Shown here in pieces: positions 1 to 31,280 of a stretch of DNA of 33,610 bases. Position 1 is the stretch's first letter. Each line of letters begins with the position of its first letter. The position numbers were made by a program, and so were the translations under genes. The notes beneath the pieces are model-generated. The model worked only from the letters and a program-made list of their open reading frames with translations, did not search any database and was not told where the DNA came from. Origin of the DNA: a virus; the IMG/VR virus record IMGVR_UViG_3300022602_000270, positions 1-33,610 of that record, one strand, 5' to 3'.

Positions 1-108
1 AATACGTTTTTGCGCTCTTACAACGGCAGGGCGCAAGTAAGTCTTGAACACCTTTGCTCTTGACGAATTCTTTGCCGCAACCTGACCAGCATTTGTGCTA
101 ACTCGCAT
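1..108 (-). CDS. Start of a structural gene, cut by the left edge
   Basis: An ATG at 108 opens a frame with no stop for 36 codons up to the edge (begins MRVSTNAGQVAAKNSS). It overlaps the last codons of the 686-aa repeat protein by 11 bases, as most neighbours do. The visible part is basic, ending PAVVRAQKRI. The other two frames give less protein-like products, although one is cysteine-rich. By position, after connector-type genes, it may be a head-tail or tail gene, but no family is recognised. It is the best evidence that the leftward morphogenesis operon continues outside the window. Confidence 0.6.
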   Translation of the reverse strand, partial: MRVSTNAGQVAAKNSSRAKVFKTYLRPAVVRAQKRI

Positions 109-2158
109 AGGTGAATTCCAAGACCGAGCAAGTAAAGCTAAGCACCCCGATCTCGATCTCATCCCCTAGATCTGCATAGTGAGTTGCGAACTCATTCATG
201 CGATCGTAAGGAGTGGACACGATATTCGTGTCATAGCAGGAGGGAATGTCCGAACCGCCCTTTTGCTGATAGTCGGAAATCAAGCGTTGGCCAATTGGAT
301 GCAACAAATCCCTGATGAAGCTGGGGTTGTCGGTTCCGTCTCGCAGCCTCTTCTGAACTAGAACCAAGTCGAATGGGATTTCGATAGCTTGGTCCTGGAC
401 CGCTAGCCCTGAAATCGGGCTGGGCTTCTGGGCGATGATCGAGATTATTGGATACGCTAAGTCTTGACCGGTTTCGACATCGGCCAAGGCTTCAAGGATT
501 GCCGTGGGCGGAATGGTCCATGCCTCAGATATCTGTTTGATGTTGTAGCGTATGCTGGGGATTAACCTTGAGCTGGTCAACGGCTGGTTGGCACTTGCTG
601 GAATTCCTTTTCCGCTAACAGCTTGAATCTCTGTGATGACCTTGTGATCAATTTCTGCGGGAACGCCTTTTGCTGTCGCAAGGCTTACTTCAACCAGTGA
701 TCTCGAATTAATCTGTGAAGGGCGACCAAGACCAGATGCAACTGTGTATTCCTTGGATTTCCAATTATCTTTTGGAGTGGCAGTTCCTTTACCTGTTGAC
801 GTAGACACGTCATTAGCTGTGTATCCGGAAGACGATTTTGGAGATCCTACGCCTACCGTTCTTGGGGCGTCCGCAAAAATAACGGTATCGGTTGACCTGG
901 GACTTGCAATTCCTTTGGCTTGGTTTGCCGAACTCGAAACATGAACGTTTACATTTGATGGGATGCCATGTCCTGAAGCCGAAGACAAATCTTTGGACTT
1001 CAGGTTATCAGATCCTGCTACCAATCCTCGACCAGTTGCCATTCCTATTTCTCGAGGCCCATATCCACCGTTGCTGAACGGCAAACCTTTTCCTGTAACC
1101 GTTGTCGTTCCGGCATAAAACACGGCTACTGACGAACTCGAAATTCCCCTTCCTGAGCTCTTAATTTGATCAAAGGCTTTTTGTGAATCCTGAGTGCTTG
1201 GCAGGCCATCGCCTATCGCAATCGTGAGCTCATAGTAGTAGTTGGGAGTGCTTGACGGTATATAGACGTCGGTAAGCGAAGGCATACCGACACCAGATGC
1301 CGGCAACGCCTCAATTGAAAGCTGTCTGTCCGCAGACGGAACCAAACCCACGCCAATGACTTGAGTGGTCTCATAAACTGTCCCAATTGGGTTATTCCAG
1401 AAATCGAGGGACGGCAGACCTTTACCAGTTGCTAGATTTTGCTCGGTAAAGGTCGTGCCTGGATAAAGAAAAGTATCAACTGAAGACGGTTGCCCTTTCC
1501 CTATGCTTGTGCTGTCTTCGTTGTAAATATAGGGGCCGCCATGCACGTACGTATCAGTGCCAGACGCAATGCCTTCGCCAGTGGCGTTGGTGGTTTCATT
1601 GTAGATGCCAGGCGAAAGAGAAGTCGAAATATGAAGAACAATCGTGGGTGAAAGTGGAACAGGGAAGAGGTACGAACCGGATCCCGTCAAATAAAAGGCT
1701 AGGGTGTCTCCATTATTTAGGAGCGATCCCAGACCTTTGAGGGCCCATTCAACCTCTACGGCGCCGTTGCTTCCTATGGTGATTCCGGCGCTTTGGCCAG
1801 AAGCCTGGGATACAACACCTGAGGCTGTTTGGAATGAATACGGCGAACCGGGGCCACTAAGCTGCTGAGTCGTGTTCGCGCCCTGGGTTAAGTTTGAGCT
1901 AGCATTTCCAGTTACATAGCTGGAAGTAGCATTTACAGGGAACCAAGAGCCCCCATTGTAGGAGCACATGAGCGAGAGCGCAGACGGGCCCGCTCCTATG
2001 CTACCAATTTGAAGCCTTACCCTGAAATTGGTGTTTGCGCCCCCAACGATATTTAAGGTTGCGTTTGTATTTTCGGGCGCAAGCCAGCTGGCCAGAGCTT
2101 GTGAGCCATCGTCATTTCTGAACCGATAGCGTAATACTGTGCCAAATACGGTTGCCAT
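98..2158 (-). CDS. 686-aa virion protein with 16 Gly-x-Gly repeats and a tail-terminator-like C-terminus
   Basis: Three parts are visible. Residues 1-185 are a Ser/Thr/Gly-rich, probably beta-structured N-terminus. Residues about 190-525 hold 16 copies of a motif like (A/S)(T/S)G-x-G-(I/L)-P-S, with the GxG at residues near 194, 220, 245, 269, 289, 316, 336, 356, 376, 396, 415, 437, 456, 476, 497 and 516. The last ten are spaced 19-22 residues apart. Residues about 530-686 look like a compact alpha/beta domain (AWTIPPTAILEAL; IEIPFDLVLVQKR) that resembles phage tail terminator or minor tail proteins, which is inference. The gene follows head-connector genes, so a virion role, perhaps a fibre or collar decoration, is likely. 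The start lacks a Shine-Dalgarno (ATAAACCATGG). The function of the repeat is unknown. Confidence 0.75.
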   Translation of the reverse strand: MATVFGTVLRYRFRNDDGSQALASWLAPENTNATLNIVGGANTNFRVRLQIGSIGAGPSALSLMCSYNGGSWFPVNATSSYVTGNASSNLTQGANTTQQLSGPGSPYSFQTASGVVSQASGQSAGITIGSNGAVEVEWALKGLGSLLNNGDTLAFYLTGSGSYLFPVPLSPTIVLHISTSLSPGIYNETTNATGEGIASGTDTYVHGGPYIYNEDSTSIGKGQPSSVDTFLYPGTTFTEQNLATGKGLPSLDFWNNPIGTVYETTQVIGVGLVPSADRQLSIEALPASGVGMPSLTDVYIPSSTPNYYYELTIAIGDGLPSTQDSQKAFDQIKSSGRGISSSSVAVFYAGTTTVTGKGLPFSNGGYGPREIGMATGRGLVAGSDNLKSKDLSSASGHGIPSNVNVHVSSSANQAKGIASPRSTDTVIFADAPRTVGVGSPKSSSGYTANDVSTSTGKGTATPKDNWKSKEYTVASGLGRPSQINSRSLVEVSLATAKGVPAEIDHKVITEIQAVSGKGIPASANQPLTSSRLIPSIRYNIKQISEAWTIPPTAILEALADVETGQDLAYPIISIIAQKPSPISGLAVQDQAIEIPFDLVLVQKRLRDGTDNPSFIRDLLHPIGQRLISDYQQKGGSDIPSCYDTNIVSTPYDRMNEFATHYADLGDEIEIGVLSFTCSVLEFTYAS
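584..1591 (-). repeat. 16-copy protein repeat (GxG[I/L]PS, about 20-residue period)
   Basis: This is the coding span of residues about 190-525 of the 686-aa virion protein. Each unit carries G-x-G-(hydrophobic)-(P/A)-S/x, often followed 2-5 residues later by Asp (for example GKGLPSLD, GVGMPSLTD, GKGQPSSVD). The DNA copies have diverged, so this is an old protein-level repeat rather than a recent tandem duplication. Confidence 0.8.
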
Positions 2159-2188: not shown

Positions 2189-2632
2189 CTAGCCGGTTGT
2201 AAGTAAGAACTTGAAGGTCTCGTTGATTTGATCTCCGTTTGCCACGTTTCGAGTCGTGGAGAGAGGAGCTGAGGCGATCAGGTTGCCACTGTTGTCAGAA
2301 GAGTCTGCAATAAAGGCATGAGTGATTCCGTTTACGGAGCCGGTGAAGTTGAACTGCTGAACTGCTAGCGTGAGAAGGGAGTCCGCGCCAGAAAGAGATT
2401 CTGGCATATTCGTGCTGTTCAATGTGACAGCGATTCGGGCATATCCTCCGCCTGAAACTTCTGCAAGATTGCTTGTCAAAGAATCTGCTTCTGCGGCATC
2501 GGAAGGATGACCGCTGACTCCGTCGAGGGTTCGCAATCCCAAGTAAAGGGTAGCTGGCTTAGTCGCCGCTCCATTGAACAGCTTATTGAAGAGACGGGCA
2601 CCGCCCGTATGGAATTTTGCCGATGCGGCCAT
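2189..2632 (-). CDS. 147-aa beta-rich phage structural protein (GYAR type)
   Basis: The protein contains ATLYLGLRT near the N-terminus, GGGYARIAVTL in the middle, and VNGITHAFIADS, TRNVANGDQ and FKFLLTTG at the end. This succession (LYLxLxT, GYARxxV, ITHxxI, VxxGDxxxF) is typical of small phage virion proteins often annotated as tail-fibre or minor structural proteins. That assignment rests on remembered resemblance. A strong AAGGAG lies 7 bases before the ATG. It sits between a connector-type gene and the repeat protein, with short gaps, in the leftward head-tail operon. Confidence 0.7.
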   Translation of the reverse strand: MAASAKFHTGGARLFNKLFNGAATKPATLYLGLRTLDGVSGHPSDAAEADSLTSNLAEVSGGGYARIAVTLNSTNMPESLSGADSLLTLAVQQFNFTGSVNGITHAFIADSSDNSGNLIASAPLSTTRNVANGDQINETFKFLLTTG

Positions 2633-2652: not shown

Positions 2653-3078
2653 TTAAGAGTTGATCTGTGACGGAATCCCGACACCGTAACCCAAAGTCGT
2701 TTCGTATATTGGGAGGCCCGTTGCCGGAGCCTTAAATAGTTGAAGCTCACAGCGAACATGAGCTGTAGAAGGAAACCGATTTCTGACGCTAGGGATTGCC
2801 ATGATGCGCCAGTATTCGCCTTCGGCAGGTATGGCAATTATTCGCCCACTTCGAAGCATGGGTGCGAACTTGACATTGAAGTAGCCAGTTGCAGATAAGG
2901 TCGGATCTCTTCCGCTTGCCAGCGCATCGTCTTTACTTTCTCGAGTGCCTCTATGGATGTTGCAATGCATCTTCGAAGCACCTTGGACTGGCGCAACTTG
3001 GCTTGGAATGAGATTAAGGTTCGAGTCAATATTGTTCGTGGGCTCGAATAAGGCGCCAAACTCTCTGAATACCGGCAT
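2653..3078 (-). CDS. 141-aa probable head closure/stopper-like protein
   Basis: The start overlaps the stop of the upstream connector gene (TGATG), so the two are coupled. The segment with AEGEYWRIMAIPSVRNRF followed by AHVRCELQLF suggests the small beta-barrel of head-closure (stopper) proteins, which usually follow the gp6-like adaptor. This rests mainly on gene order. The C-terminus, GYGVGIPSQINS, repeats the GxGxPS motif of the 686-aa protein nearby; one copy there also reads PSQINS. The fold is not certain. Confidence 0.65.
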   Translation of the reverse strand: MPVFREFGALFEPTNNIDSNLNLIPSQVAPVQGASKMHCNIHRGTRESKDDALASGRDPTLSATGYFNVKFAPMLRSGRIIAIPAEGEYWRIMAIPSVRNRFPSTAHVRCELQLFKAPATGLPIYETTLGYGVGIPSQINS

Positions 3079-4286: not shown

Positions 4287-5711
4287 CTAGACCGGAGTCA
4301 GGCCAGTGGAGATTGCGAAGACCGTTGCACCCTTCATTCGGGGAACGGAGTACACGGAAACAATGCCCGGGTACTTCTGGGGCGAGGTGGCCGCTGGTGC
4401 AACTTCCTGCGCGACGTAGCCCTGAATGTTCACGTTCGGAGCAAGTTCAGGCAGCTGAACCTGTGGGAGAACACGAACGTCCATGGCGACCTTACCGTCA
4501 GCGAGGTAGTCGCTTCCGAAGATCATGGTGCCGGCAGGAACAAAGCGGGAAACCAGGATCGGAACGATCTCACCCGTGATTGGGTGCTTATAGCCGGTGA
4601 CCTTCAAGCCGAGCGGGGCATCGGCATCAGCCGTTGCCATTACGCGGATGATAGTTCCAGATCCCTCAGCCAAGTGGACCAGTGAAAGAGCTTCCTGACC
4701 ATTGACGAGGATATATTGACCGTTACCGCCCTGATTAAAGACCCTGGTCAACTGAGAGTCAATGTGGGCAGTGGTGAGGGCGCCCACGTTCACTTGAACA
4801 TGCGCAGCCGGAGTTCCGTTCGCAGTCGAGATGAGCTTAATCATGCCGTCATAGGCGAGAGCGTTGGTGCCGTCGCCAAACGGAGCAGTCACGATGGTGG
4901 AGTCAGCGTTAATGAGCGCATTCTCTTCCATCAACATCAGACGTCGAATGGCCGCAGTCTTTTCCAGGGCGAGCTGATTGTCGAATGAAGCGCCAGCAGC
5001 CATAGCAAGCCCAGTGATGCTGAACATCGTGCCCAAGAGCTTGTAGGTCGCTGTCTTCTTAGCGTAGGTTGGGGACACGTCTGACGGTGCTCCAGACTCA
5101 CTAAAGAATGCTTGCGCGCTTGGATCCTGGCCTGGCTGGACGAATGGGCCAGCGCTGACTGACTCACCAGTGGTCGTTGAAATCGTGGAAGTCAACACGA
5201 CTGTGGTCGAGTTGGTCACGCTCTGCACGGTTCGGTAAGCATTCGTGACAGCAAAGTACAGGGAAGTACCAGCCTGCATACCACGGGTGTCGCCAACCGT
5301 TTGAGTGGCCGAAGAAGCTCCCAAGGTAACAGTGGTCTTGACACCGTAGCCGCCGCCAAGGCTTGTTTCCTGTTCCCAAGTCGATGCTGAGCCTGAACCC
5401 ACGCTACGAGGCAGTCGATTGCGGAGAGGCGTTTGAACTGGGATCAGAGAGGAAACTTCGGCTTCCAGGTCTTCGCGGACTGGAACGCCAGCGAGATTCT
5501 GGGCACGAAGAACGCCTTCCATCATTGCCATGTTGAGTTCATACATGGCCTGCTGTGGATCTACTCCACCGAAGTCTCCGCGCTGGATGCGATCAAACTT
5601 CTCTCTGACGTCAGACGTGATCGATCGCGAAAATACTGATCGCGAAATAGGGACGATACCGAGGCCGGATTCCCCGAGGCCGGGGTCCATGAAGCCGCTG
5701 TTTGGAAACAT
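4287..5711 (-). CDS. Major capsid protein (HK97-type) with an inserted domain
   Basis: The 474-aa protein follows the protease-scaffold gene and precedes connector genes, the canonical place for the capsid protein. The acidic, helical N-terminus (residues 30-90) fits a delta-like region. SLIPVQTPLRNRLP (residues 88-101) is typical of capsid proteins that assemble through an N-arm. Residues about 126-188 are a Thr/Ser/Val-rich domain of about 63 residues that is 60% identical to part of the gene at 6956-7507. Later parts (KLLGTMFSITGLAM; EENALINAD; GYKHPITGEIVPILVSRF) look like the HK97 A and P domains. A good Shine-Dalgarno (AGGAG) precedes the ATG, and a strong terminator follows. The HK97 fold is inferred, not proven. 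Confidence 0.85.
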   Translation of the reverse strand: MFPNSGFMDPGLGESGLGIVPISRSVFSRSITSDVREKFDRIQRGDFGGVDPQQAMYELNMAMMEGVLRAQNLAGVPVREDLEAEVSSLIPVQTPLRNRLPRSVGSGSASTWEQETSLGGGYGVKTTVTLGASSATQTVGDTRGMQAGTSLYFAVTNAYRTVQSVTNSTTVVLTSTISTTTGESVSAGPFVQPGQDPSAQAFFSESGAPSDVSPTYAKKTATYKLLGTMFSITGLAMAAGASFDNQLALEKTAAIRRLMLMEENALINADSTIVTAPFGDGTNALAYDGMIKLISTANGTPAAHVQVNVGALTTAHIDSQLTRVFNQGGNGQYILVNGQEALSLVHLAEGSGTIIRVMATADADAPLGLKVTGYKHPITGEIVPILVSRFVPAGTMIFGSDYLADGKVAMDVRVLPQVQLPELAPNVNIQGYVAQEVAPAATSPQKYPGIVSVYSVPRMKGATVFAISTGLTPV

Positions 5712-7577: not shown

Positions 7578-7916
7578 CTACTTTCCGTTGGCTGATGCAG
7601 AGAAGGTAACGCTGGCTCCTGAGCCAGCAAGAGTCCAAGACAGTTGCCCGATCATTCCGGGCTCCTTATTCACTTCGAGTCCGTGCCCGATATTTGCGGA
7701 GAGCGATCCCGTGTTTCCAAGCGTTCCGGACCACACTTGGAAGTAATTACCGTCGTGGCCCTTGCGACTGTAAGTAAAGGTCACGGAGCCTGTGATTGCA
7801 CTCACATTGATATCCAAGTGCACGCGATCAACTGCAGACGTGGGGAAGTCTTCAGATTGACCGTTTGAGTTCTTTGTGGCGCTTGCCAACAGGAGAAGAG
7901 ACTGTGAATTAGGCAT
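7578..7916 (-). CDS. 112-aa beta-rich virion protein, paralog of 6956-7507
   Basis: The protein has the pattern SNGQSEDF, HLDINVSAITGSVTFTYSRK, GHDGNYFQVWSGTLG, TGSLSANIGHG and QLSWTLAGS, all matched in the next gene. It is wholly beta-like, with no membrane segment or signal peptide. It starts on the last base of the portal gene's TAA (TAATG), so it is coupled to portal translation, and it ends at a terminator. Such small proteins beside portal and protease are often decoration or head-associated proteins, but no named family is claimed. Confidence 0.7.
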   Translation of the reverse strand: MPNSQSLLLLASATKNSNGQSEDFPTSAVDRVHLDINVSAITGSVTFTYSRKGHDGNYFQVWSGTLGNTGSLSANIGHGLEVNKEPGMIGQLSWTLAGSGASVTFSASANGK

Positions 7917-10219
7917 TAGATTATTCCGTCCGCAGGGTCATAGAACGAAGTCGAACCCGATTTGGCGACAACGTAGCAGCGACAATTCTTGCGACATTGG
8001 GTTTGGCAGAGACCGGGAAGGGTCGGGATTGTTTCAGGAGTGTATGGAGAGTTAGAGGCCAACTCCTCGCAGTCGCCGCACTCGCTTTCGTCTTCGGTAT
8101 CAACCCAATCGAGCTCGTCATCCTTCTCAAGTGAATTCGCCCAGGCTTGGTTAGCGGTTCCAACCAGACGCCTTGCGAATCCTTCGACTCTCTGTCTGAT
8201 CTGGGCTTCGGACAAGCCGCCCTGAATATCTCCAGCGAGTTTCTCAAGGTAAATCAGTTGGGACTTCGCAGACTTGATTCCAAGCTCGATGTCTGCTGCA
8301 GAGGCAACCTTTGTATCTCCTGACAAGGTTGCTCTGACTCTCCCAAGTGTTGCCGCTTGCGTGTGCAGGGGCTCAAGAGCTTCGACAACGTTTTGGGCGA
8401 AACCGGTGATTCCGACTTGACCGTTTTGAAGATCGGCGACGGTGACCTCGAAGGCTGACGGCACTTCTCCCATAACTGACAGCAGGAGCGGGATCAAACG
8501 CTTTCGTTTACGATCATCCTCCGCGTCATCATCGCCTTCGTCTTCGGTTGCTGCACGGAAAACCGATTGCACGTCCGCAATAGACATGGCATCAGCAAGG
8601 CCAGTGGCAATCCTGAATGCCTTTTCTCGGCTGATGGTGGCACTTTCAAAAGTGCACTTAGCTGGTCGACCATCCTTGACTCGTCTGATGGACTTCCGTA
8701 GCCACCGGTTAAGGTCTTCGGCATCATCCGCAGGTGCTTGCGATTTGGGATCGCTTGCATCTGGAGCAATGTCAGGCTCTTGCTGAGCAAAATCAAGAGT
8801 GATAGTGCCGTTCGGAACAAGAATTACGTCTCCGCCTGCAATCGGATCTTCACCCGCGAGCTTTCTAGCATCGTTAACGGTTCGGAACCCGAAACCTCCG
8901 GTTGAGGTTACGAGCCGGGAATCTCGTTCGCTGTTGGTTTCTTCAGCTGCCTTTGGTTTTCTAACCTCAAGATCATGGTAACCGAGATCCTGGAGGAGAT
9001 CGTCGTAGTGCTCATTTCGAAGGTCTAGCAGAGTGCTGGCCCCGAACTGAGTTGTCGAGTTCATTGATTCCTCTTGACTGACTTTGTACTGCTCTCCCGC
9101 GAATCCGATTGAAGCCGGAGAGACGCCCATGATCGAACAAGTTCGACGGAGTAACCACAGCATGAACTCCTGAAAGTCTTGATCCTTTCGTGTAGCTGCT
9201 CTCGACTCCTTGACGCCTGTTGGGACAAATATGGCTGACTGGCGCTTAGCCAGGTCACCGATCATGAGCATGTTGAAGTACTCACTGTATTCCCGGATCA
9301 TCGATGGGGTCCAGGTTTCCGGAGTGTTGAACATTTGCCCGGGCGTGTTACCTTCCGTAAGCCAGACTCGGTTCCATTCATCGGCCTTGAGTGCAGACAA
9401 TACAGTCGCAATTAGGTATTCGACAGGGGAGTCGAAGTAAGGCGAATCTGTTCGAGGATATAAGCCATCGTAAGTGAGTTCATCGGGCAAGAACTCCGTG
9501 ATCTTCATCCCGAGGATCCATTGTTCAAACCAGTTCTCTCCTGGTCCTGGCCAGCCATAAGCATCCATGCGCGGGCGGATGGTGGCACTGTCAATGAGGA
9601 TGGAATTCAGGAGATCGCCAGCAAGGGTTCTCTTTTTCCATGCGGCAAATGCACCAATGACAAGAGTGTCCTCAACGAGCATGGACTCATAGTGGCGACG
9701 GGTTTGGTTGATCTCGCCGAGGCCTCCACGTTTGCCGAAGAAGTACGTGGCTTCCTTGACGCGCTTCATCATGGCTGCACTGGCGTCGTTTTCGTCCTTT
9801 GGACCAATAACAAATGGTTGAGCGTGGAGCTCAGTCTTGAGATGGTTTATACAGGACCTCAAGACGTCGTAATTCTTAGCAAACTGTCTGAGCGTGTCCG
9901 TACTGAGGATCGTGTTTGGTCTACGCTTGGGAGTATTTGGAGTCGCATAGAATAGCGGTTGATCATAGCCGTAGAGCGGTCTCGGACTGCCTTGGACCTG
10001 GGGATAGCTGAACGGAACCTGAGCTGTTAACTGGTAGCCGCTCTTTCCACCTGCGTTGCCATCATTGCCAAACATCTGCCTGGCCAATTCCATGGCCATC
10101 TTTTCACGGGCTCTCTGCTCGATTTTGGGTGCTTCTTCTGCTAGTCTGCTCTCGATAGCCGCTGGAAGGCGCGAAGCCATCTGGCGCTCAAAGTAGGCAG
10201 AGACAATTGGTATCTTCAT
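7916..10219 (-). CDS. Portal protein fused to a MuF-like C-terminal domain
   Basis: The 767-aa product starts 4 bases inside the terminase end (ATGA). Residues about 100-490 have portal hallmarks: DTLRQFAKNYDVLRSCINHLK near the N-terminus, LIDSATIRPRMDAYGWPGPGE, the long helix region with LAKRQSAIFVPTG, and SIMGVSPASIGFAGEQYKVSQEE. Residues about 560-700 are helical (VVEALEPLHTQAATLGRVRAT). Residues 705-767 carry WVDTEDESECGDCEEL, SPYTPETIP and six Cys (714, 717, 738, 742, 746, 748), which matches the Cys-rich end of MuF/minor head proteins (PF04233). The portal forms the DNA entry ring; the MuF part is probably internal. Confidence 0.85.
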   Translation of the reverse strand: MKIPIVSAYFERQMASRLPAAIESRLAEEAPKIEQRAREKMAMELARQMFGNDGNAGGKSGYQLTAQVPFSYPQVQGSPRPLYGYDQPLFYATPNTPKRRPNTILSTDTLRQFAKNYDVLRSCINHLKTELHAQPFVIGPKDENDASAAMMKRVKEATYFFGKRGGLGEINQTRRHYESMLVEDTLVIGAFAAWKKRTLAGDLLNSILIDSATIRPRMDAYGWPGPGENWFEQWILGMKITEFLPDELTYDGLYPRTDSPYFDSPVEYLIATVLSALKADEWNRVWLTEGNTPGQMFNTPETWTPSMIREYSEYFNMLMIGDLAKRQSAIFVPTGVKESRAATRKDQDFQEFMLWLLRRTCSIMGVSPASIGFAGEQYKVSQEESMNSTTQFGASTLLDLRNEHYDDLLQDLGYHDLEVRKPKAAEETNSERDSRLVTSTGGFGFRTVNDARKLAGEDPIAGGDVILVPNGTITLDFAQQEPDIAPDASDPKSQAPADDAEDLNRWLRKSIRRVKDGRPAKCTFESATISREKAFRIATGLADAMSIADVQSVFRAATEDEGDDDAEDDRKRKRLIPLLLSVMGEVPSAFEVTVADLQNGQVGITGFAQNVVEALEPLHTQAATLGRVRATLSGDTKVASAADIELGIKSAKSQLIYLEKLAGDIQGGLSEAQIRQRVEGFARRLVGTANQAWANSLEKDDELDWVDTEDESECGDCEELASNSPYTPETIPTLPGLCQTQCRKNCRCYVVAKSGSTSFYDPADGII

Positions 10220-21091: not shown

Positions 21092-21763
21092 ATGATTTGC
21101 ATGGCTTCCGACGATCCACGAATACATTTGATAAATGCTCAGCTCACCCGGCTTGGGCTGTCAGCGCGTTGGCTGGCTGACAAGATCGGGGTAAGTAACG
21201 TCGCTTTGAGTAAGTGGTTGAACGGAGACAGTGTGCCCAGGAACAAGGACAGCTGGACACAAATGCTTTCAGTGCTGAAGGACTATGAAAAGGATATTTC
21301 GAATAACAAAACCGTCGCCTTGCAGAGAGTTGGACTCCGTAAAGTCATTGTCTATCCGAGTATCACCGCTGGCATGATGGGAAGTGTTGAAGCTGATTCC
21401 TTCACTTTAGACCTTAAAGACTGGGGTACAGACCGCGAGCGATGGGGGCGTACGATCAGCGGCCACTCAATGGAACCTGAACTGATCCCAGAAGATATTG
21501 TTATCTTTGAGGATCGACCGTATGAGCCTTATCACGTTGTCCACGCCTTCGACAACGGGGAAGATACGATCAAGGTTGTTCGCGGTCACGGCGATTCCGT
21601 GGAACTTGTACCGATCAATCCAGATTATTCGGTGCTTCCTGCTCGCAATGTGAACATCAAAGGGGTTGCTGTAGCTCGAATCCGCAAGGGGCCAGAGGGA
21701 ATTGTCACTACCACCGAATACCCTCACGGAATGCGGTTTAGAGTTCATTCACAAAAAGCGTAA
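21092..21763 (+). CDS. Prophage repressor, LexA/CI-type with S24 peptidase domain
   Basis: Residues 12-50 are an HTH (LTRLGLSARWLADKIGVSNVALSKWLNGDSV). Residues 85-215 are an S24 domain, with Ser126 in SGHSMEPEL, Lys161 in GEDTIKVVRG, and an Ala-Gly cleavage candidate at 93-94 (SITAGMMG). So RecA-triggered self-cleavage and induction by DNA damage are expected. A start at ATG 21092 or 21101 is possible; no Shine-Dalgarno is visible. It sits between mirrored operator arrays, and its 3' end contains a further hexamer (21748). No terminator separates it from the rightward promoter, so lysogenic transcripts may run into the early genes. Confidence 0.9.
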   Translation: MICMASDDPRIHLINAQLTRLGLSARWLADKIGVSNVALSKWLNGDSVPRNKDSWTQMLSVLKDYEKDISNNKTVALQRVGLRKVIVYPSITAGMMGSVEADSFTLDLKDWGTDRERWGRTISGHSMEPELIPEDIVIFEDRPYEPYHVVHAFDNGEDTIKVVRGHGDSVELVPINPDYSVLPARNVNIKGVAVARIRKGPEGIVTTTEYPHGMRFRVHSQKA

Positions 21764-23569: not shown

Positions 23570-25168
23570 ATGAACGCATTAGCAAACAAACAAGAGAACC
23601 AGATCGCCACTTACGTCGAAGAGCCAGTAAAGCTCCTTGACCCTCGCGCCGAAGGCGGTGTCATCAGCTACGAATCCGGCCAGTCCATGAAGATGTGGGC
23701 GGCAACCATCAGTGCTGGCTATAAGGATGGAGACACCCCCAGAGTTGTCCGCGATGGCAAGATCCGATTGCATGAGGACATGGGTGAAGCCCCAGGAATC
23801 AAAGCCGCTCTCGCCGCAACCGAGCACAAGTCGATCACCATCACCATGCTTAGTGACAACATCGGTGACTGCCTCAAGCAACTCTTCTGTGCTTACGGCA
23901 CGGTCAAGATCTTTGGCGACCAAAACAGCTTGACCACCATGAAGCTGGAGAACGGCAAGCAAGTCCGAGAGACTATTCCATCCTCTGACCCAAGGTTCCA
24001 GTCGATGCTTAGTCTCTGCAAGCCCTGCACGTTCGTTCCGTTTGCCCTCGCCGAATGGGACGAGCAGAACAATCCCAGCATTACCTTCCCCGATGGGCTT
24101 GTGCCTTACCGACTCCGTTTTGGGAGTATTAACAGCGCCAAGGCTTTTGTCGACAGCTTGCAAGCGATCAAGCGCTTAACCGGTGGCCATCTCGTTGGTG
24201 TCCCCTTGGTTCTTAGCATCGCCTACAAGACCGTCATGACGCCCGACCTCAAGAGACAGAGCGTTCCCGTTTGGAATCCTGTGCTCAAGCATCCAAAAGG
24301 GATCCAGTTCGGCGCCCGCGACATCCAAAGAGTTCTTACCGCTGGAATCCGAGACGCACAGCAGATGGCGCTTCCTGCCTCGATTGCCCTCGATGAGCAA
24401 GTCATGGAAGCGGTCGTCGTCTCCGAAGAGAGAATCGCCGACGAGGAAACCGGCGAGGTCATCATGCAGGGAAGCCATCAGGATCTGAGGACAATCACAA
24501 CTGCCGAAGTTCCAGCCCGACGCCAAGAGGATTACTTCAAGGCGATGCAGGGAACTCCTTATGTCACTGATGCTCACCGTCCGCGGTTGATTCAGAGGAT
24601 GGCTGATGCCGCTGGCGTTGTCATTAGCAATCCCAGCCTCAGAGAACTTGCGGAGGTCGCAACTGCTAGCGAGTGGGAAATCTGCGCGGAAGTCATGTGC
24701 AAAGCCGCTGCCGCTTATCACGGGACCGAAGAAACCAAGCCACCGAAGGCAGTAGTTTCCGATGATCCCTACGCGCAACTGAACGAGGCTGCGAATACAC
24801 AGCAAGTGGTGGTTACCGAGCCAGTCCAGGAAGCTGTGATCACGGAGCCTGTGCGGAAGCAGAAGCCACCGGAGGCAGAGCCTGAGAAGCAAGCTCAGGA
24901 AGAAGCGAAGGCAGAGTTACCGAAGGTCAATAACTACCTTGCTCTTGATCGTCAACCGACAGCAGAGGAATCCAAAGCTGCCAGCGCATACACCAAGAAG
25001 CACTTTAACGCCGATCAGTTTATGCAGATCGGCAAAGCCGCTGGTGGCATCGATGTCCGCTTCGTAATCTTGGAAGCTCGAAGGCAAGGAATTACCGACT
25101 TCACCCAGACCATGCGACTGCTGGACGAGAACTTCGGCAAGGAAGAGCAAGCGGGGCTGGAACTCTAA
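23570..25168 (+). CDS. 532-aa early protein, possible recombination or ssDNA-related function
   Basis: Residues about 80-230 hold a compact domain ([58 protein letters not shown]). The run of RLRF-S, then GVPLxLxI, then a VPVW strand recalls the gp3/recombination directionality factor group, a remembered resemblance only. Residues about 395-450 are a Pro/Glu/Lys linker ([19 protein letters not shown]), and the C-terminus is helical ([20 protein letters not shown]). It lies just before the nuclease genes. The start has AAACCATGAA and no Shine-Dalgarno. Confidence 0.6.
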
Positions 25169-25824
25169 TGCGAATTTTTGTAGGGCCACGAAACACAGGC
25201 AAGAGAACCCATGGCATGACGGGAACTCCTACCTACAGAGTTTGGAGGGGCATTATTGCCCGATGTACAAACCCAAAGGTAAGAAGCTACCCAGACTATG
25301 GAGGGCGCGGGATTATTGTTTGCGATCGATGGCGATGGTCGTTTGATAACTTCCTTGCGGACATGGGAGAAAGGCCTGGTGACGGTTACGAAATAAACCG
25401 CCTTGACAACAATGGCCCATATGAACCAGGCAATTGCGAATGGGCAACTAGAAAGGAACAAGCCAATAACCGTCGAAGTAGTCGCGTTCTCGAATTTCGG
25501 GGAAGAAAACAAACTTTAGCTCAGTGGGCGGCAGAACTTGACCTTCCAAGGGCAACTATACAAGCTCGCTTAAAGTACGGATGGAACGTTGAGCGGGCAC
25601 TTTCAGAGCCAAATCTATCTCAGTCAAGCAGAAACGGTCTAAATAATCCTGCGGCAAAGCTTTCAACTCAGCAAATAGCCGAAATACGCCGGATTTGGCA
25701 AACAAACGCGCACCGAACGAGGTGGAAGCCTGGTGTAACCATGCGGGATATCGCAGGTCAGTTCGGCGTTTCACGGGGATACGTTTCTCAAGTTATCTCC
25801 GAAATCAAAAGGAAGGTGGCTTGA
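25168..25824 (+). CDS. HNH-like endonuclease with C-terminal HTH elements
   Basis: Residues 17-106 follow a familiar phage pattern: [53 protein letters not shown] and [19 protein letters not shown]. This looks like a compact HNH-type nuclease. Residues 108-148 ([20 protein letters not shown]) are a NUMOD-like HTH and residues 165-218 ([18 protein letters not shown] region) a second HTH. It is inserted between the 532-aa gene and sbcD, with TAATG and TGATG at its ends, and its codons look more AT-rich. A free-standing homing endonuclease is likely. Confidence 0.75.
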
Positions 25825-26963
25825 TGTTAATAAGTCACATTTCTGACAGTCATTTGGGGAAACGGCAATTCCCCAAAACTCATCAGTCGGGCTTGAATCA
25901 GCGCGAAGTCGACGTCATGACCACCTTCAAGGCAAACCTTGATTCCATCCTGACCTACGCGCCCGACCTGGTTCTCCACAGTGGTGACCTGTTCGACGTC
26001 GTTCGCCCGTCCAACAACACGATCACGCAGGCGCACTTAATCATTTCCGAGTTCCAACGAGCTCGGAACTATGCTCCTTTCGTTCTTGTCGGTGGCAACC
26101 ACGATTCACCCAAGGCCCTGGAGATGGGGAACATTCAGAACCTCATCGCAAGGATTCCTGGCGTCAGATTCGCCGGGAACATGAGTCAAAGAATTGACCT
26201 CAGACCCGAGTTGGACTGCGAAGTCCTATGCGTCCCATCAAATTCCCTAGTTGCTAGAGAAGAGGTCATCTACCGTCCGATGCTGGGGTGCAAGTATTCA
26301 ATCTTGAGCGTCCACGGAATGGCTACTCAGGCCCTTCCGAAAGCAGTGGATCTTGTCCACGCTGACTTCGACGTCAACGAACTCCACACCCACCTCTTCA
26401 CCTATACAGCCCTTGGTGACTATCACGTCCACAGTGAGTACGCCCCCAACTGTTGCTTTGCTGGCTCAACTGACTACACGAGTTCCAATATCTGGGAGGA
26501 AGTCAGCACACCCAAAGGCTGGGTGCTCTTCGACACCGAAGTCGGCCAGCTCAAACACATTGCCGTAGCGACTCGCGAAGCAATCGATCTGCCTGCCATT
26601 GACGCCAGCGAAATGTCGGTCGAAGAGATTCAAGACCGCATGGCTTTAGCCGCCGTATTCGACGGGACTCCAATCGTGCGCCAAAAGATCATGGGCATTC
26701 ACCCCCAAGATCGTCGCCGCCTCTTCCAAGGGCCATGTATTCGCGAGATCCAAGCCCGGTGCCTTAACTACCAGGTCGTATGCGAGGCCCCTGCTCGTGA
26801 TAAGGGCGATGGGTCTATAGCAACCGCTACTGGTCAAGCAAGCACATTGGAAAGTCTTTGGAGCGAGTACAGCCTTGGCTCCAGCATTCCCAGCGGTTGC
26901 GATCGCGAAGCATTTACGAAGGCCGGGCTCGACCTTCTGGAGGAAGCACAGCAAGCAGCATGA
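25824..26963 (+). CDS. sbcD: SbcD/Mre11-type nuclease subunit
   Basis: ATG 25824 (GGAAGGTGG upstream; TGATG with the previous stop) gives 379 aa beginning [14 protein letters not shown]. Metal ligands are Asp8 and His10, SGDLFD (Asp55), GNHD (92-94), VHGM (His164) and GDYHVH (His201/203), the full calcineurin-like phosphoesterase set. With SbcC it cuts hairpins and processes DNA ends. The C-terminal 100 residues are divergent. The overlap with sbcC (ATGA) fits co-assembly. Phage copies (T4 gp47-like) serve replication, recombination and degradation of host DNA. Confidence 0.92.
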   Translation: MLISHISDSHLGKRQFPKTHQSGLNQREVDVMTTFKANLDSILTYAPDLVLHSGDLFDVVRPSNNTITQAHLIISEFQRARNYAPFVLVGGNHDSPKALEMGNIQNLIARIPGVRFAGNMSQRIDLRPELDCEVLCVPSNSLVAREEVIYRPMLGCKYSILSVHGMATQALPKAVDLVHADFDVNELHTHLFTYTALGDYHVHSEYAPNCCFAGSTDYTSSNIWEEVSTPKGWVLFDTEVGQLKHIAVATREAIDLPAIDASEMSVEEIQDRMALAAVFDGTPIVRQKIMGIHPQDRRRLFQGPCIREIQARCLNYQVVCEAPARDKGDGSIATATGQASTLESLWSEYSLGSSIPSGCDREAFTKAGLDLLEEAQQAA

Positions 26964-29356
26964 AAATTATCAGCCTGAAACTAAACAACTTCCGCCAGCA
27001 TGCGGAATCCTACATAGAATTCACTAACGGGCTCACAGCTTTAGTGGGTCGAAATGGTGTCGGCAAGAGCACACTCCTGGAGGCGATTACCTTCGCCTGC
27101 TTTGGAGAGCAACGCAATAGCAAGGACAGTATTCGCTTCGCTTGGGCGACAAGCAAGAAGTTCAGCGTTACCCTCGTCTTTAAACTTGACGGTTCGATCC
27201 TCGAGGTTATAAGAGCAAGCGATACCGCCAGCTTCTCCGATATCACTGGACCCACTCCCAAAGTCTTGGCCACGTCACTGAGTGAGGTCACCAAAGCAGT
27301 CGAGAAGCGACTTGGATTGACCTACGAGCAGTTCGTGAATTCGTTTATTTGCGAGCAGAAATCTTTGGCATTCCTAAACTTCAAGTCCAACTCCGACAGG
27401 CAAAAGGAAGTGGCGAAGATGCTAGGCTTCGACCGCTTGCAGAAGGCCGAGGATTTAGCTAGAGAGAAGGCGAAGACTGCGCGTTTGAAGGTGGAAGCCT
27501 TGGCCCAGGTCCTTGGGGATCTCGAATCCTTGAAGGCAGATGCAAGCGCAAGGGAATCTGAACTCACTGGCATCGTCGAGGAGCTCGGCAAGGTTTGCGA
27601 TCGACACGCCCAACTTGAAGTCGGGCGCCAAGTCGTCGAACTCAGGGCCAAACAAGCTCAGGAGTATAGCGAGCTCTCCACCTGCATCCAAACACTTGGA
27701 GGTCGCTACTCTGCACTCAAGGAAGCGAAGGACTTGGCTGCAGCTGAATTCTCGGCGGCAAACGCACAAGTGGAGCGCCGGCAGGAGATCCAGGAGCAAG
27801 CGCAAAAGTATCCAGGCCTAGCAGACGAGCTCAAGGTCTTGGCGACAGCAAAGGAACACGTCGGAAAGCGCAGGGAACTCGCAGCAGAAGCCGAGGCCAA
27901 GGCAAATGAGATCAAGGTCTTGGAATCGAAGGTTGCGTCTATCAAATGTGGAGATCCCGCAAAGATTGAAGCCGAGATCGAAGCCTTGGTGTCTGAGGTC
28001 AAGACACTGGATAAAGCATTCCAAGCCCTGAACGACGCCTGGATTGCTCGAAAGAGCGAAGCCGCATCTGCTCTCGCGGTTGCACAGTCCAGACTCCAAG
28101 CTGCAGAGAAGGAACTAGCGAAGGCACAGGCTAGGGCCAGCGAAGGCATTTGCGCTAGTTGTGGTCAAGCACTTCCTGAATCTGCGCTACCAAATGTTTC
28201 TGAGTACGAGGAAGCGGTAGCAGAAGCAAAGCAGATGGTAGCCGATGCCGAATCCCAGGCCCAAGCCACAGAACCTGAGAGCCTTGCAAGTGCTCGGTCT
28301 CAAATCCAGGAGAAGGATGCGGACATTCACAGCCTCCGAAATGATCTTAGGACTGCACAGGAGCAAGTGCAGGCGCGAGATCAGATCCTTGGCAAGATTG
28401 AGGTCTTAAAGCAGGCGATCGCAGGGATCGAATTGCAGTTGCAGGGTCTAGCCAGCGCATACGATGTCAGCCGCGAGCATACGCTCAGAGTGGAAGCGCA
28501 GATGCTGGAGCCATTGCACAGGGAATGGCAATCACTGGCTGGCGCAAGCGAGCGCCTGCAACGTGCTCAAGCTCAATTCGACATTGCTACCGCTAACATC
28601 AACGCGGCAAAGACCGAGAACGATAGCTTGAAAGCAAAGCGAGCACTCTTAGGCTTCGATACTCCTGAGGATGCTGTCAGGGCTGTCGATGCTCTAATCA
28701 ATCTCAATACCGAGTCCAGAACACTTACCACGGAAATGAATGGGCTTGGCCAGCGAAAGGCCCAGGCCGAGGCCGCAGTAGCAACTGCCAAAGCGAGAAT
28801 CCAGGACTACCGAAAGCGGGAAGCCGAAATCAAAGAGTTGGTGAGCGCAAGAGTCCTCAACGAGGTCTTGGCTCAGGATATGAAGGCGCTGCGCTTGCAG
28901 CTGAACGCTGGCATTGCTCCTGAACTCAGTGCTCGCGCATCAGAGATCCTTTCACTATTGACGGGTGGTCGCTACACCGTGCTCGAGCTCAATGACAAGT
29001 TCGAGGCATCGCTCGTGGATGACGGTGTCAATAAAGCCGTTCTAAGCGGGGGCGAAGAGGACATAAAGGATCTGGCGCTCAGGCTTGCTCTGGCCCAACT
29101 GATACAAGAGCGACAGGGGCGACCGATGTCACTCCTGATCCTTGACGAAATCTTTGGAAGCCTAGATGCTGACAGACGCCAGGCGGTTTTGGATTGTCTG
29201 ATCGGGCTCAAGAGCTTGTTCTCACAGATCATCCTCATTAGCCACATCGAGGGCACGAGCGAGGTCGCAGACAACATCGTGTACCTGCACCGAGATCCTG
29301 ACACGAGAGCGACGGTCGTAGGAGATGGTCCCGAATCCATGGAGGTGGCGGCGTAA
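26960..29356 (+). CDS. sbcC: SbcC/Rad50-type ATPase subunit
   Basis: ATG 26960 gives 798 aa (MKIISLKLNNFRQHAESYIE). Walker A GRNGVGKST (30-38), a long coiled coil from about 180 to 670, a zinc-hook CASCGQ (Cys about 397 and 400), signature LSGGEED (about 695), Walker B LLILDEIFGSLD (about 725), and an H-loop LISHIEG. All SMC-like ABC parts are present. It is shorter than E. coli SbcC, mainly in the coiled coil. It overlaps sbcD by 4 bases and works with it on DNA ends. Confidence 0.93.
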   Translation: MKIISLKLNNFRQHAESYIEFTNGLTALVGRNGVGKSTLLEAITFACFGEQRNSKDSIRFAWATSKKFSVTLVFKLDGSILEVIRASDTASFSDITGPTPKVLATSLSEVTKAVEKRLGLTYEQFVNSFICEQKSLAFLNFKSNSDRQKEVAKMLGFDRLQKAEDLAREKAKTARLKVEALAQVLGDLESLKADASARESELTGIVEELGKVCDRHAQLEVGRQVVELRAKQAQEYSELSTCIQTLGGRYSALKEAKDLAAAEFSAANAQVERRQEIQEQAQKYPGLADELKVLATAKEHVGKRRELAAEAEAKANEIKVLESKVASIKCGDPAKIEAEIEALVSEVKTLDKAFQALNDAWIARKSEAASALAVAQSRLQAAEKELAKAQARASEGICASCGQALPESALPNVSEYEEAVAEAKQMVADAESQAQATEPESLASARSQIQEKDADIHSLRNDLRTAQEQVQARDQILGKIEVLKQAIAGIELQLQGLASAYDVSREHTLRVEAQMLEPLHREWQSLAGASERLQRAQAQFDIATANINAAKTENDSLKAKRALLGFDTPEDAVRAVDALINLNTESRTLTTEMNGLGQRKAQAEAAVATAKARIQDYRKREAEIKELVSARVLNEVLAQDMKALRLQLNAGIAPELSARASEILSLLTGGRYTVLELNDKFEASLVDDGVNKAVLSGGEEDIKDLALRLALAQLIQERQGRPMSLLILDEIFGSLDADRRQAVLDCLIGLKSLFSQIILISHIEGTSEVADNIVYLHRDPDTRATVVGDGPESMEVAA

Positions 29357-30045
29357 TGGGGCAACTCAAAGACAAACCGATACCGTTCTCCACTCCAATG
29401 GTCCAAGCGATCAAAGAACGTCGCAAGACGATGACACGCAGGATCATCAAGTGTGACTGGCTGGATAAAGTCGAAGTGGACAAAACTGGATTTACCGCTG
29501 CAACGCCTCCAGGATTCATTTCTGTGCGCGGGACATTCCCATCCGGCGAATATGGCGACAAGCACATAAAGCTGCCCTACCAAGTCGGTCAACGGCTATG
29601 GGTGAAGGAAACATGGGCCAAGGTGCCTATGACGGCCTATTGGCATGATTTAACCATCCCACATCAAGAATTGAAGAACAGTGATGCCCGTGGTGATGGA
29701 TGGTGGGCTGTCTACAAAGCTGGCTGGGATCGAGTGTCACCGGGTTGGAAATCATCACGATTCATGCCACGTTGGGCTTCTCGAATCACTTTGGAAGTTG
29801 TGTCCATTCGTGCAGAGCGAGTGCAGGACATAAATGGCGCAGATGCTTTTGCCGAAGGCGGTCCATGCTCAGCATGGGCTGAAATGGACTGGGATGATGA
29901 CGGTTATCCGACTTCATACGTGAAACGAGATCAACGAGCAGTCGAAGAATTCGAAGAACTTTGGGATCGTCTCAATGGCAAAACCTACCCTTGGAGTTCT
30001 AACCCTTGGGTGTGGGTAATCGAGTTCAAGGTGGTGGAACCGTGA
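29356..30045 (+). CDS. ASCH/phage morphogenetic-type protein
   Basis: The 229-aa protein shows the set KPIPFSTPMVQAI, TMTRRIIK, YQVGQRLWVKETW, FMPRWASRITLEV, VERVQDI-like (RAERVQDI), FEELWDRLNGK and NPWVWVIEFK. These mark a family common in lambdoid and other phages, often called morphogenetic or ASCH-like, with no settled activity. An RNA or modified-base binding role is suggested by the ASCH/PUA relation. It starts at the last base of the sbcC stop (TAATG). Confidence 0.75.
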   Translation: MGQLKDKPIPFSTPMVQAIKERRKTMTRRIIKCDWLDKVEVDKTGFTAATPPGFISVRGTFPSGEYGDKHIKLPYQVGQRLWVKETWAKVPMTAYWHDLTIPHQELKNSDARGDGWWAVYKAGWDRVSPGWKSSRFMPRWASRITLEVVSIRAERVQDINGADAFAEGGPCSAWAEMDWDDDGYPTSYVKRDQRAVEEFEELWDRLNGKTYPWSSNPWVWVIEFKVVEP

Positions 30046-30266
30046 AAAGGCTAAGTCAGGAAGGATTTGTACTCTTACTTGTTGGCGCCTGGATGTGGGC
30101 GTGTGTTGCCCGCGTGATTATTGATAATCGCGCAGCTCACTTAAAACCCGGAGTGTTCACCATCCAAACCGGTTGCTATGAGCCGACCACGATCAAGGTC
30201 TACAACGACGATCTTGGCAACACCACGATCAGCGGCACGGTTGTTCCGTGCAAGGGGGAGAAATGA
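30042..30266 (+). CDS. 74-aa membrane-anchored protein
   Basis: GTG 30042 (GTGA with the previous stop, AAGGTGG upstream) gives VKRLSQEGFVLLLVGAWMW and a membrane helix to about residue 27, then an exported-looking part with two Cys (TGCYEP and VPCKGEK). An ATG start at 30006 would add a run through the previous gene and is rejected. Function unknown. Confidence 0.6.
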   Translation: MKRLSQEGFVLLLVGAWMWACVARVIIDNRAAHLKPGVFTIQTGCYEPTTIKVYNDDLGNTTISGTVVPCKGEK

Positions 30267-30784
30267 AAAAGCACTTCTTGAAGTGGTGGAACGAACAGAC
30301 ACGTCTTGGTGATCCATCCCGACGATACAATCTTGTCCAAGATGCTTACCAAGCCGCATGGGAACTCCAGCAAGGCAAGATTGACGAACTGAACTCAACA
30401 ATCAAGGACTTGATGACTCCCAAGATCAAGCAACTGCACTTCAAGGACGGCAAGTTTGATGCGACCCTTCAGCATGAAATGTTTCGGCTTGTCGTAGAGG
30501 CAATGTTTGAGCAATTCAAGGCATGTGGAGGAGCCAATTACGTTTGTTGGACACTGAACCATTTGGAGTCGATGGACCAATACGAACTCACCATGCAGAA
30601 GAAGTCTGGTCAGACGCCATCTGAACAAAATGCACGGCTGAAAACCGAGATTATTGCTATGAATGTCCTAATCAAAGACGCTTACGAATTCCTTGACAGC
30701 TACGGAGTTGTCTACGACGCTGGCGACAAAAGAGGAATTACACAACAAGCCTTATTTGATCGAATGCGTGAGGTTTTGAAATGA
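30263..30784 (+). CDS. 173-aa helical protein
   Basis: ATG 30263 has GGGGGAG upstream and overlaps the last stop (ATGA). The helical product (NLVQDAYQAAWELQQGKIDE; MFRLVVEAMFEQFKACGG) ends with ALFDRMREVLK. No motif is recognised. It couples to the next gene with ATGA. Confidence 0.65.
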   Translation: MKKHFLKWWNEQTRLGDPSRRYNLVQDAYQAAWELQQGKIDELNSTIKDLMTPKIKQLHFKDGKFDATLQHEMFRLVVEAMFEQFKACGGANYVCWTLNHLESMDQYELTMQKKSGQTPSEQNARLKTEIIAMNVLIKDAYEFLDSYGVVYDAGDKRGITQQALFDRMREVLK

Positions 30785-31035
30785 CCTGTTCCAAGTGTGG
30801 CGGTTTAATGGTTTGGGTTGGGCCATTGACCGCCCTTACGCACACTCAGTGCCAAGTTTGCGGAGGCGTGAACTGCCAAGTGGTTGAACCCGAGGATGAA
30901 CCCGAGGATGAAACCAAGCAGATTCGACGCTGGCCGTGTGGCACCGAGCAGGCCATGCCATCAGAGCCTTATGGTTGGTTGAGTGATGACTTTGAAGTCG
31001 TGACTGTGCCGCTCGATTACGAGGTGGGAGAATGA
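30781..31035 (+). CDS. 84-aa zinc-ribbon protein
   Basis: CSKCGG (residues 3-8) and CQVCGG (about 24-29) make a four-Cys zinc ribbon, followed by an acidic EPEDEPEDE repeat encoded by a 12-base duplicate (CCCGAGGATGAA) and a Trp/Pro-rich end. Small zinc ribbons of this type in phages may touch nucleic acids or RNA polymerase. Role unknown. Confidence 0.65.
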   Translation: MTCSKCGGLMVWVGPLTALTHTQCQVCGGVNCQVVEPEDEPEDETKQIRRWPCGTEQAMPSEPYGWLSDDFEVVTVPLDYEVGE

Positions 31036-31280
31036 GCCACATCCAAACCGCCAATCTCCTGCGCGTGTTCGTTCTTCTCGCCATCATCGCTTGTGTGGCG
31101 ATTGGCTTACCTATAGCCATTGTATACGTCGCGGCACTAGCCAGCCTGAGCAGTCGGCAATTCTGGGGGCTGACGCTTTCCTTCGCCGCGCTGTGTGTTT
31201 TGAGCTACGCCGTGCAATGGCTGTTCGGTGTCGCGTCTGATCTGTGCAAGTTTATCAAACAGTTGGAGGTGGAAGCGTGA
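31032..31280 (+). CDS. 82-aa protein with two membrane helices
   Basis: Two helices, LLRVFVLLAIIACVAIGLPI plus the following AIVYVAALA, and FWGLTLSFAALCVLSYAVQW, with a charged C-terminus. GGTGGGAG precedes the ATG, which overlaps the previous stop. Its early-operon position separates it from the lysis genes. Membrane function unknown. Confidence 0.65.
   Translation: MSHIQTANLLRVFVLLAIIACVAIGLPIAIVYVAALASLSSRQFWGLTLSFAALCVLSYAVQWLFGVASDLCKFIKQLEVEA

What the first reader, a model, noticed from the sequence alone, without database searches (positions are those of the whole stretch)
584..1591. A virion protein with 16 Gly-x-Gly-x-Pro-Ser repeats of about 20 residues
The repeat is regular over ten copies (19-22 residues) and conserved at a few positions only. 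It lies between an N-terminal beta-rich region and a tail-terminator-like domain. I know no named repeat with this pattern. It may form a beta-solenoid or a flexible surface spike for host binding.
Basis: seen in the sequence. Interest (0 to 1): 0.7.

Follow-up and report, generated by a model that had tools for sequence, protein, structure and literature searches.

The report
20-residue repeat protein beside whisker subunit
A phage gene encodes a protein with sixteen copies of a roughly 20-residue Gly-x-Gly-x-Pro-Ser unit. It sits next to a gene for a known phage neck-fibre subunit, and the same pairing recurs in unrelated phages, so the repeats probably form the string on which the fibre's beads are hung.

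Summary
The repeats are real: 16 copies in a 686-aa protein on the minus strand (98-2158), ten of fifteen spacings exactly 20 residues. Pfam, PHROGs and the PDB have no match. (1) The next gene (2189-2632) encodes a Gp80-like protein (PF23140). This family forms chain-like fibre I in podophage GP4 (PDB 8JOU), and a relative is the neck-whisker subunit gp31 of phage Sf14 (PDB 9C39). (2) The gene before that, a neck protein by position, ends in one copy of the same repeat (0 of 5000 shuffles as good). (3) The pairing is general. In 17 other phage regions with a Gp80-like gene, an adjacent gene has a dominant period of exactly 20 residues in seven, against 0 of 92 other genes. In reverse, 12 of 22 repeat loci carry a Gp80-like gene against 4 of 98 controls. 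Best reading: the repeat protein is the scaffold of a neck or tail whisker whose beads are the Gp80-like protein. The pairing is shown; one repeat binding one bead is inferred. AlphaFold could not resolve the fold, and the tail-terminator domain is suggested only by gene position.

The parts
98..2158 (-). P0001, 686-aa repeat protein: N-terminal beta domain, 16 repeats, C-terminal domain
1619..2158 (-). N-terminal domain (residues 1-180) with the YRFRNDDGS signature; the same signature occurs in phage proteins L170-L177, several of which also carry arrays of about 20 residues
596..1579 (-). array of 16 [AS][TS]GxG[IL]PSxx[DN] repeats (motifs at residues 194-521)
101..577 (-). C-terminal domain (residues 528-686) in the gene position of a tail terminator; identity not supported by sequence
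2189..2632 (-). P0004, Gp80-like protein (PF23140, phrog_240): predicted bead of the whisker or fibre
2653..3078 (-). P0006, 141-aa protein in the neck (head-closure) position, no family match
2656..2688 (-). single copy of the repeat motif (YGVGIPSQINS) at the C-terminus of P0006; PSQINS is identical to repeat 14 of P0001
3078..3731 (-). head-tail adaptor (phrog_442)
4287..5711 (-). SU10-type major capsid protein
7916..10219 (-). portal protein

Best explanation
P0001 and the adjacent Gp80-like protein P0004 are the two parts of a whisker or chain-like fibre attached at the head-tail neck. P0001 is the string: its 16 units of about 20 residues present a repeated beta segment with a conserved GxG[IL]PS turn. 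P0004 is the bead, several copies of which bind along the string. The C-terminal domain, in the position of a tail terminator, and the single motif at the end of neck protein P0006 would anchor the assembly to the neck. Shown: the repeats, the gene pair, the extra motif in P0006, the recurrence of the pair in other phages, and that relatives of P0004 are whisker or chain-fibre subunits in solved structures. Inferred: that the repeats bind P0004, the stoichiometry, and the anchoring.
For: P0004 matches PF23140 at E 1.4e-14. A profile of P0004 with eight relatives (A6) matches PDB 8jou_a, which is GP4 gp80 (10 chains), at E 2.5e-21, and 9c39_K at 1.4e-4. 9C39 is the Sf14 neck, where gp31 is a whisker subunit on a dimer of the adjacent-gene product gp30, one chain of which threads through both whiskers (PMC11821841). 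The deposited entry lists 6 chains of the Gp80-like gp31 and 2 of gp30. Pairing, Gp80-first: an adjacent gene with top lag exactly 20 in 7 of 17 phage regions (7 of 34 adjacent genes), 0 of 92 other genes; Fisher p 2.7e-4 at z>3. Pairing, repeat-first: 12 of 22 clean 20-residue repeat loci carry a Gp80-like gene against 4 of 98 other loci of the same scan (p 8e-8) and 0 of 79 portal-relative loci. BcepIL02 gp55 (Gp80-like) and gp56 (lag 20, z 11.3) are both annotated virion-associated. The motif at the P0006 C-terminus is not reached by 5000 shuffles. L125 independently fuses about 20-residue repeats to a T4 gp15 tail terminator (PF16724, E 3e-56).
Against: Sf14 gp30, the solved partner, is not periodic (lag 22, z 1.4), so the structural precedent is for the bead and not for a 20-residue string. 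Ten of 17 Gp80-like regions have no adjacent gene whose top lag is 20 (one of these, L270, has lag 40). Sequences of the repeat families differ so much that homology between P0001 and most of them is not shown: only L165 beat all 60 decoys, and L165 was chosen by a motif pattern. No structure of a 20-residue string bound to a Gp80-like protein exists here. In JC1, the gene that by my positional count matches gp56 is not in the virion mass-spectrometry list.
Confidence: 0.5

Rival explanations
1. P0001 is a self-contained elongated fibre or beta-solenoid spike on the virion. The Gp80-like protein is a neighbour in the same fibre cluster but does not bind the repeats.
For: AF2 of the analogous L125 array gives a regular all-beta model with two short strands per 20 residues (pLDDT 72.5, pTM 0.72). 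Best though insignificant PDB matches are beta-helices. The L125 array matches the beta-flower model PF21786 (E 6.3e-11).
Against: No significant fold match. AF2 invents confident solenoids for tandem repeats (PMC11795689). It does not explain the strong pairing with Gp80-like genes nor the single motif in P0006. The model of P0001 itself has pLDDT of about 27 in the repeats.
Confidence: 0.27
2. The repeats are a flexible, disordered linker between an N-terminal beta domain and a C-terminal neck domain; the motif has no partner and only provides length.
For: Low-complexity, Ser/Thr/Gly-rich sequence with irregular early spacings (24-27 residues); AF2 very low pLDDT over the repeats.
Against: GxG, P and D are conserved against divergent surroundings, and the 20-residue period is kept across unrelated phages, which a pure linker would not need. 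Low pLDDT with 7 rows is not evidence of disorder. A copy in a second protein suggests a functional motif.
Confidence: 0.13
3. P0001 is a host-binding tail spike or adhesin.
For: Its N-terminal signature domain occurs in other large phage proteins with repeats.
Against: No receptor-binding or enzymatic domain match; the gene lies in the neck cluster, not after the tape-measure and baseplate genes.
Confidence: 0.07

Closest known systems
Shigella phage Sf14 neck whisker, gp30 plus gp31 (PDB 9C39, PMC11821841)
   Same: The Gp80-like subunit (gp31) is encoded next to its partner (gp30), which threads through the whisker; it is attached at the neck.
   Different: gp30 is 166 aa with no 20-residue period and has no sequence relation to P0001.
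Podophage GP4 fibre I, gp80 (PDB 8JOU, PF23140)
   Same: P0004 and its relatives match it by profile (E 2.5e-21); Pfam names the family the fibre I protein.
   Different: No 20-residue repeat chain was found in the PDB by sequence. Related Burkholderia phages have a 20-residue repeat gene directly after the gp80 homologue; the GP4 genome was not in the collection.
Anabaena myophage A-1(L) bead-chain neck fibre gp80-gp81-gp82 (PMC10966104)
   Same: A beads-in-a-row fibre attached to the neck, built from adjacent genes.
   Different: The beads chain head-to-tail by themselves through N-terminal hairpins with no long string protein. Homology to P0004 not tested.
phrog_23524 proteins (L072, L089, L108, L114) and mycobacteriophage minor tail proteins next to Gp80-like genes
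   Same: Period of about 20 residues and adjacent Gp80-like gene.
   Different: Consensus RTATGSGxGTxxA and others; no demonstrated sequence homology to the P0001 repeat.
Beta-flower fold, PF21786 (PMC10584680)
   Same: Beta-hairpin units of about 19 residues; the L125 array matches the model above its cut-off.
   Different: P0001 has no match at E<=1; the beta-flower is a closed 8- to 12-strand barrel.

Membership tests
Gp80 family PF23140 (for P0004) | curated Pfam score cut-off (27 bits) | tested here: met
   54.9 bits, E 1.4e-14
Gp80 family PF23140 (for P0004) | profile match to the solved member 8JOU | tested here: met
   profile of 9 relatives including P0004, E 2.5e-21; P0004 alone does not reach it
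Gp80-paired 20-residue repeat proteins (for P0001) | dominant self-similarity at a lag of 20 residues | tested here: met
   lag 20, z 8.9 over lags 10-40
Gp80-paired 20-residue repeat proteins (for P0001) | gene adjacent to a Gp80-like gene | tested here: met
   P0004 ends 30 bases upstream of the P0001 start
Gp80-paired 20-residue repeat proteins (for P0001) | physical binding to the Gp80-like protein | not testable with these tools
   single-chain prediction only; no complex available
Tail terminator (C-terminal domain) | sequence or profile match to tail-terminator families | tested here: not met
   no Pfam match, PHROG only 0.29; hhalign E 0.51 to three terminator-position proteins
Tail terminator (C-terminal domain) | gene position after adaptor and neck genes | tested here: met
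   Polewnik L180 and L182 gene order
Beta-flower PF21786 | Pfam score cut-off | tested here: not met
   no match for P0001 at E<=1; met only by L125
Beta-solenoid | regular coiled beta structure | tested here: inconclusive
   P0001 model unusable; analogue model beta but unmatched

The most novel reading that the evidence does not exclude
A general phage device: a tandem 20-residue docking repeat in which each unit captures one Gp80-like subunit, so the number of repeats sets the number of beads and the length of the whisker. Neck proteins such as P0006 carry a single docking unit, so the same bead joins whisker to neck. The repeat sequence varies from phage to phage but the 20-residue step is kept.
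Probability: 0.27. Interest if true: 0.78.

Novelty: new variant of a known kind. Interest (0 to 1): 0.55.

Why it matters
Gp80-like proteins are in 283 phage records by one query and are usually annotated as head, minor tail or hypothetical protein. Finding that they recur with an unnamed 20-residue repeat protein gives both a likely common role. It also makes a structural question testable: how a repeating chain organises whisker or fibre subunits, and whether repeat number is a ruler for whisker length, as the tape measure is for tail length.

Tried and rejected
Whole-protein tblastn in phages and a peptide scan of IMG/VR: no relatives of P0001. First GxG pattern scan of IMG/VR: mostly Gly-rich low complexity, filtered by hand to 22 clean loci. 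Second, P0001-specific pattern scan: one convincing relative, L165. Profile-profile tests of P0001 units against 11 repeat families with column-permuted decoys: only L165 passed. Alignment scan for the phrog_23524 family failed. AF2 of P0001 unusable. P0006 as head-closure protein: no sequence support. phrog_644 protein upstream of L125 as a Gp80 relative: not significant (E 0.13). GP4 genome record not held. A first periodicity test limited to lags 15-26 was replaced by the unbiased one over lags 10-40, which lowered the count from 11 to 7 phage regions.

Full report
OBSERVATION. The finding lies in an ORF on the minus strand, window 98-2158, 686 aa. Sixteen motif copies start at residues 194 to 516. 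Ten of the fifteen spacings are exactly 20; the others are 24-27 near the N-terminus and one 18/22 pair. The loose motif count of 16 compares with a shuffle mean of 1.4 and maximum of 7 in 20,000 shuffles. An unbiased self-similarity scan over lags 10-40 puts the maximum at 20 with z 8.9. Consensus by position: A/S, T/S, G, K or other, invariant G, I/L, P, S, x, x, D/N. At DNA level only short stretches of 66-78% identity remain, so the duplications are old.

CONTEXT. The window is a whole 33.6-kb virus record; position 1 is the contig end, so genes downstream of P0001 are missing. On the minus strand the order is terminase, portal, two small ORFs, protease, SU10-type capsid protein, a 158-aa protein, adaptor (phrog_442), P0006 (141 aa), P0004 (147 aa) and P0001. 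The portal and capsid relatives L182 and L184 (capsid identity about 46-48%) show an adaptor, neck proteins and, in L182, a terminator-like protein, major tail protein and tape measure. Brevundimonas phage Polewnik has the same kind of order. So P0001 sits where a tail-terminator gene would be, but its C-terminal domain has no profile support for that identity. I treat this as a positional hint only.

THE NEIGHBOUR. P0004 matches PF23140, the fibre I protein gp80 of podophage GP4 (54.9 bits, cut-off 27). A profile of nine relatives including P0004 matches PDB 8jou_a at E 2.5e-21 and 9c39_K at E 1.4e-4. 9C39 is the neck of Shigella phage Sf14. There the 110-aa Gp80-like gp31 and the product of the adjacent gene, gp30, build the neck whiskers, and one gp30 chain threads through two whiskers (PMC11821841). 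The deposited model lists six chains of the Gp80-like protein and two of gp30. In Anabaena phage A-1(L), bead-chain neck fibres are built from adjacent genes (PMC10966104); whether those beads are Gp80 relatives was not tested.

A SECOND PROTEIN WITH THE MOTIF. P0006 ends in ...TTLGYGVGIPSQINS. Scored with a matrix from the 16 repeats it is the best non-array site in the window (15.6 bits) and no shuffle of P0006 in 5000 reaches it. One out-of-context six-frame site elsewhere scores 15.1, so the window-wide margin is thin; the position at the exact C-terminus of the neck gene, and the PSQINS identity with repeat 14, are what make it convincing.

THE PAIRING IS GENERAL. Two tests from opposite ends agree. 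From Gp80-like genes: 17 phage regions were fetched because they hold a Gp80-like gene, without regard to repeats. In seven of them a gene directly adjacent has its top self-similarity at exactly 20 residues with z above 2, against none of 92 other genes in the same regions; Fisher p is 2.7e-4 at z above 3. Two more adjacent genes have a top lag of 40. From repeats: an IMG/VR scan for GxG at 20-residue steps gave 22 loci with clean repeats. Twelve hold a Gp80-like gene by HMM, against 4 of 98 other loci of the same scan and 0 of 79 portal-selected loci. Related phages are counted separately in both tests, so the p-values are optimistic. The clean loci were picked by eye and by complexity filters. 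Proteins of the pair are annotated virion-associated in Burkholderia phage BcepIL02 (gp55 and gp56). In JC1 the list of virion proteins (PMC9144972) contains gp53 but not gp54, the positions I infer for bead and string.

IS IT ONE FAMILY? The repeat sequences differ widely: GxGIPSxE in L165, RTATGSGxGT in phrog_23524 proteins, PGxGSIxFTGxAP in L125, GxGTRRTFGAGAADLVLNV in BcepIL02 gp56. Only L165 is alignable to P0001 above 60 column-permuted decoys, and it was selected by a related pattern. So the general statement is about a shared period and a shared partner, not proven common descent.

STRUCTURE. AF2 with a 7-row alignment of P0001 is unusable (mean pLDDT 33.6). A 240-residue array from L125, whose protein ends in a T4 gp15-type tail terminator (PF16724), gives an all-beta model with about two strands per 20 residues (pLDDT 72.5, pTM 0.72), with no fold match at E 0.001 in PDB or BFVD. 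AF2 is documented to give confident, unrealistic solenoids for repeats (PMC11795689), so I draw no conclusion beyond beta propensity. The L125 array also matches the beta-flower model PF21786; P0001 does not.

MECHANISM. The most economical account is a bead-and-string whisker. P0001 supplies a repeated beta segment; copies of the Gp80-like P0004 bind along it; the C-terminal domain of P0001 and the lone motif on P0006 tie it to the neck. Shown: repeats, gene pair, second motif, recurrence, and structural role of P0004 relatives. Inferred: direct binding, one bead per unit, and location in this particular virion.

NOVELTY. Neck whiskers and bead-chain fibres are known. A 20-residue repeat partner recurring beside Gp80-like genes is, as far as the held libraries and papers show, unnamed. 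I file it as a new variant of a known kind, with the docking-repeat model as the most novel reading not excluded.

Noticed in passing
L125:5236-9471: A 1411-aa protein fuses a long array of repeats (about 20 residues each, 30 or more copies) to a T4 gp15-type tail terminator (PF16724); part of the array matches the beta-flower model PF21786.
   Followed up: partly
window 1619-2158 (minus); L170-L177: The N-terminal YRFRNDDGS domain of P0001 is shared with large proteins of other viral contigs, usually at their C-terminus after arrays of about 20 residues.
   Followed up: partly
phages collection (283 records): Gp80-like proteins are widely annotated as head protein or minor tail protein; the solved relatives are a fibre (GP4) and a neck whisker (Sf14).
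   Followed up: partly
window 25168-32149 (plus): HNH endonuclease, SbcC-like protein, phrog_874 protein and a DNA methyltransferase, with a CI/LexA-type repressor at 21092-21763, suggesting a temperate phage.
   Followed up: no
L184:16958-19588: An 876-aa gene, by eye resembling a secreted parallel beta-helix protein, is inserted between the capsid genes and the adaptor in a relative of the window phage.
   Followed up: no
L264:5821-6978 and L270:5819-6973: Mycobacteriophage minor tail proteins next to Gp80-like genes combine a short 20-residue-period array with a Gly_rich_2 domain (PF21722).
   Followed up: no
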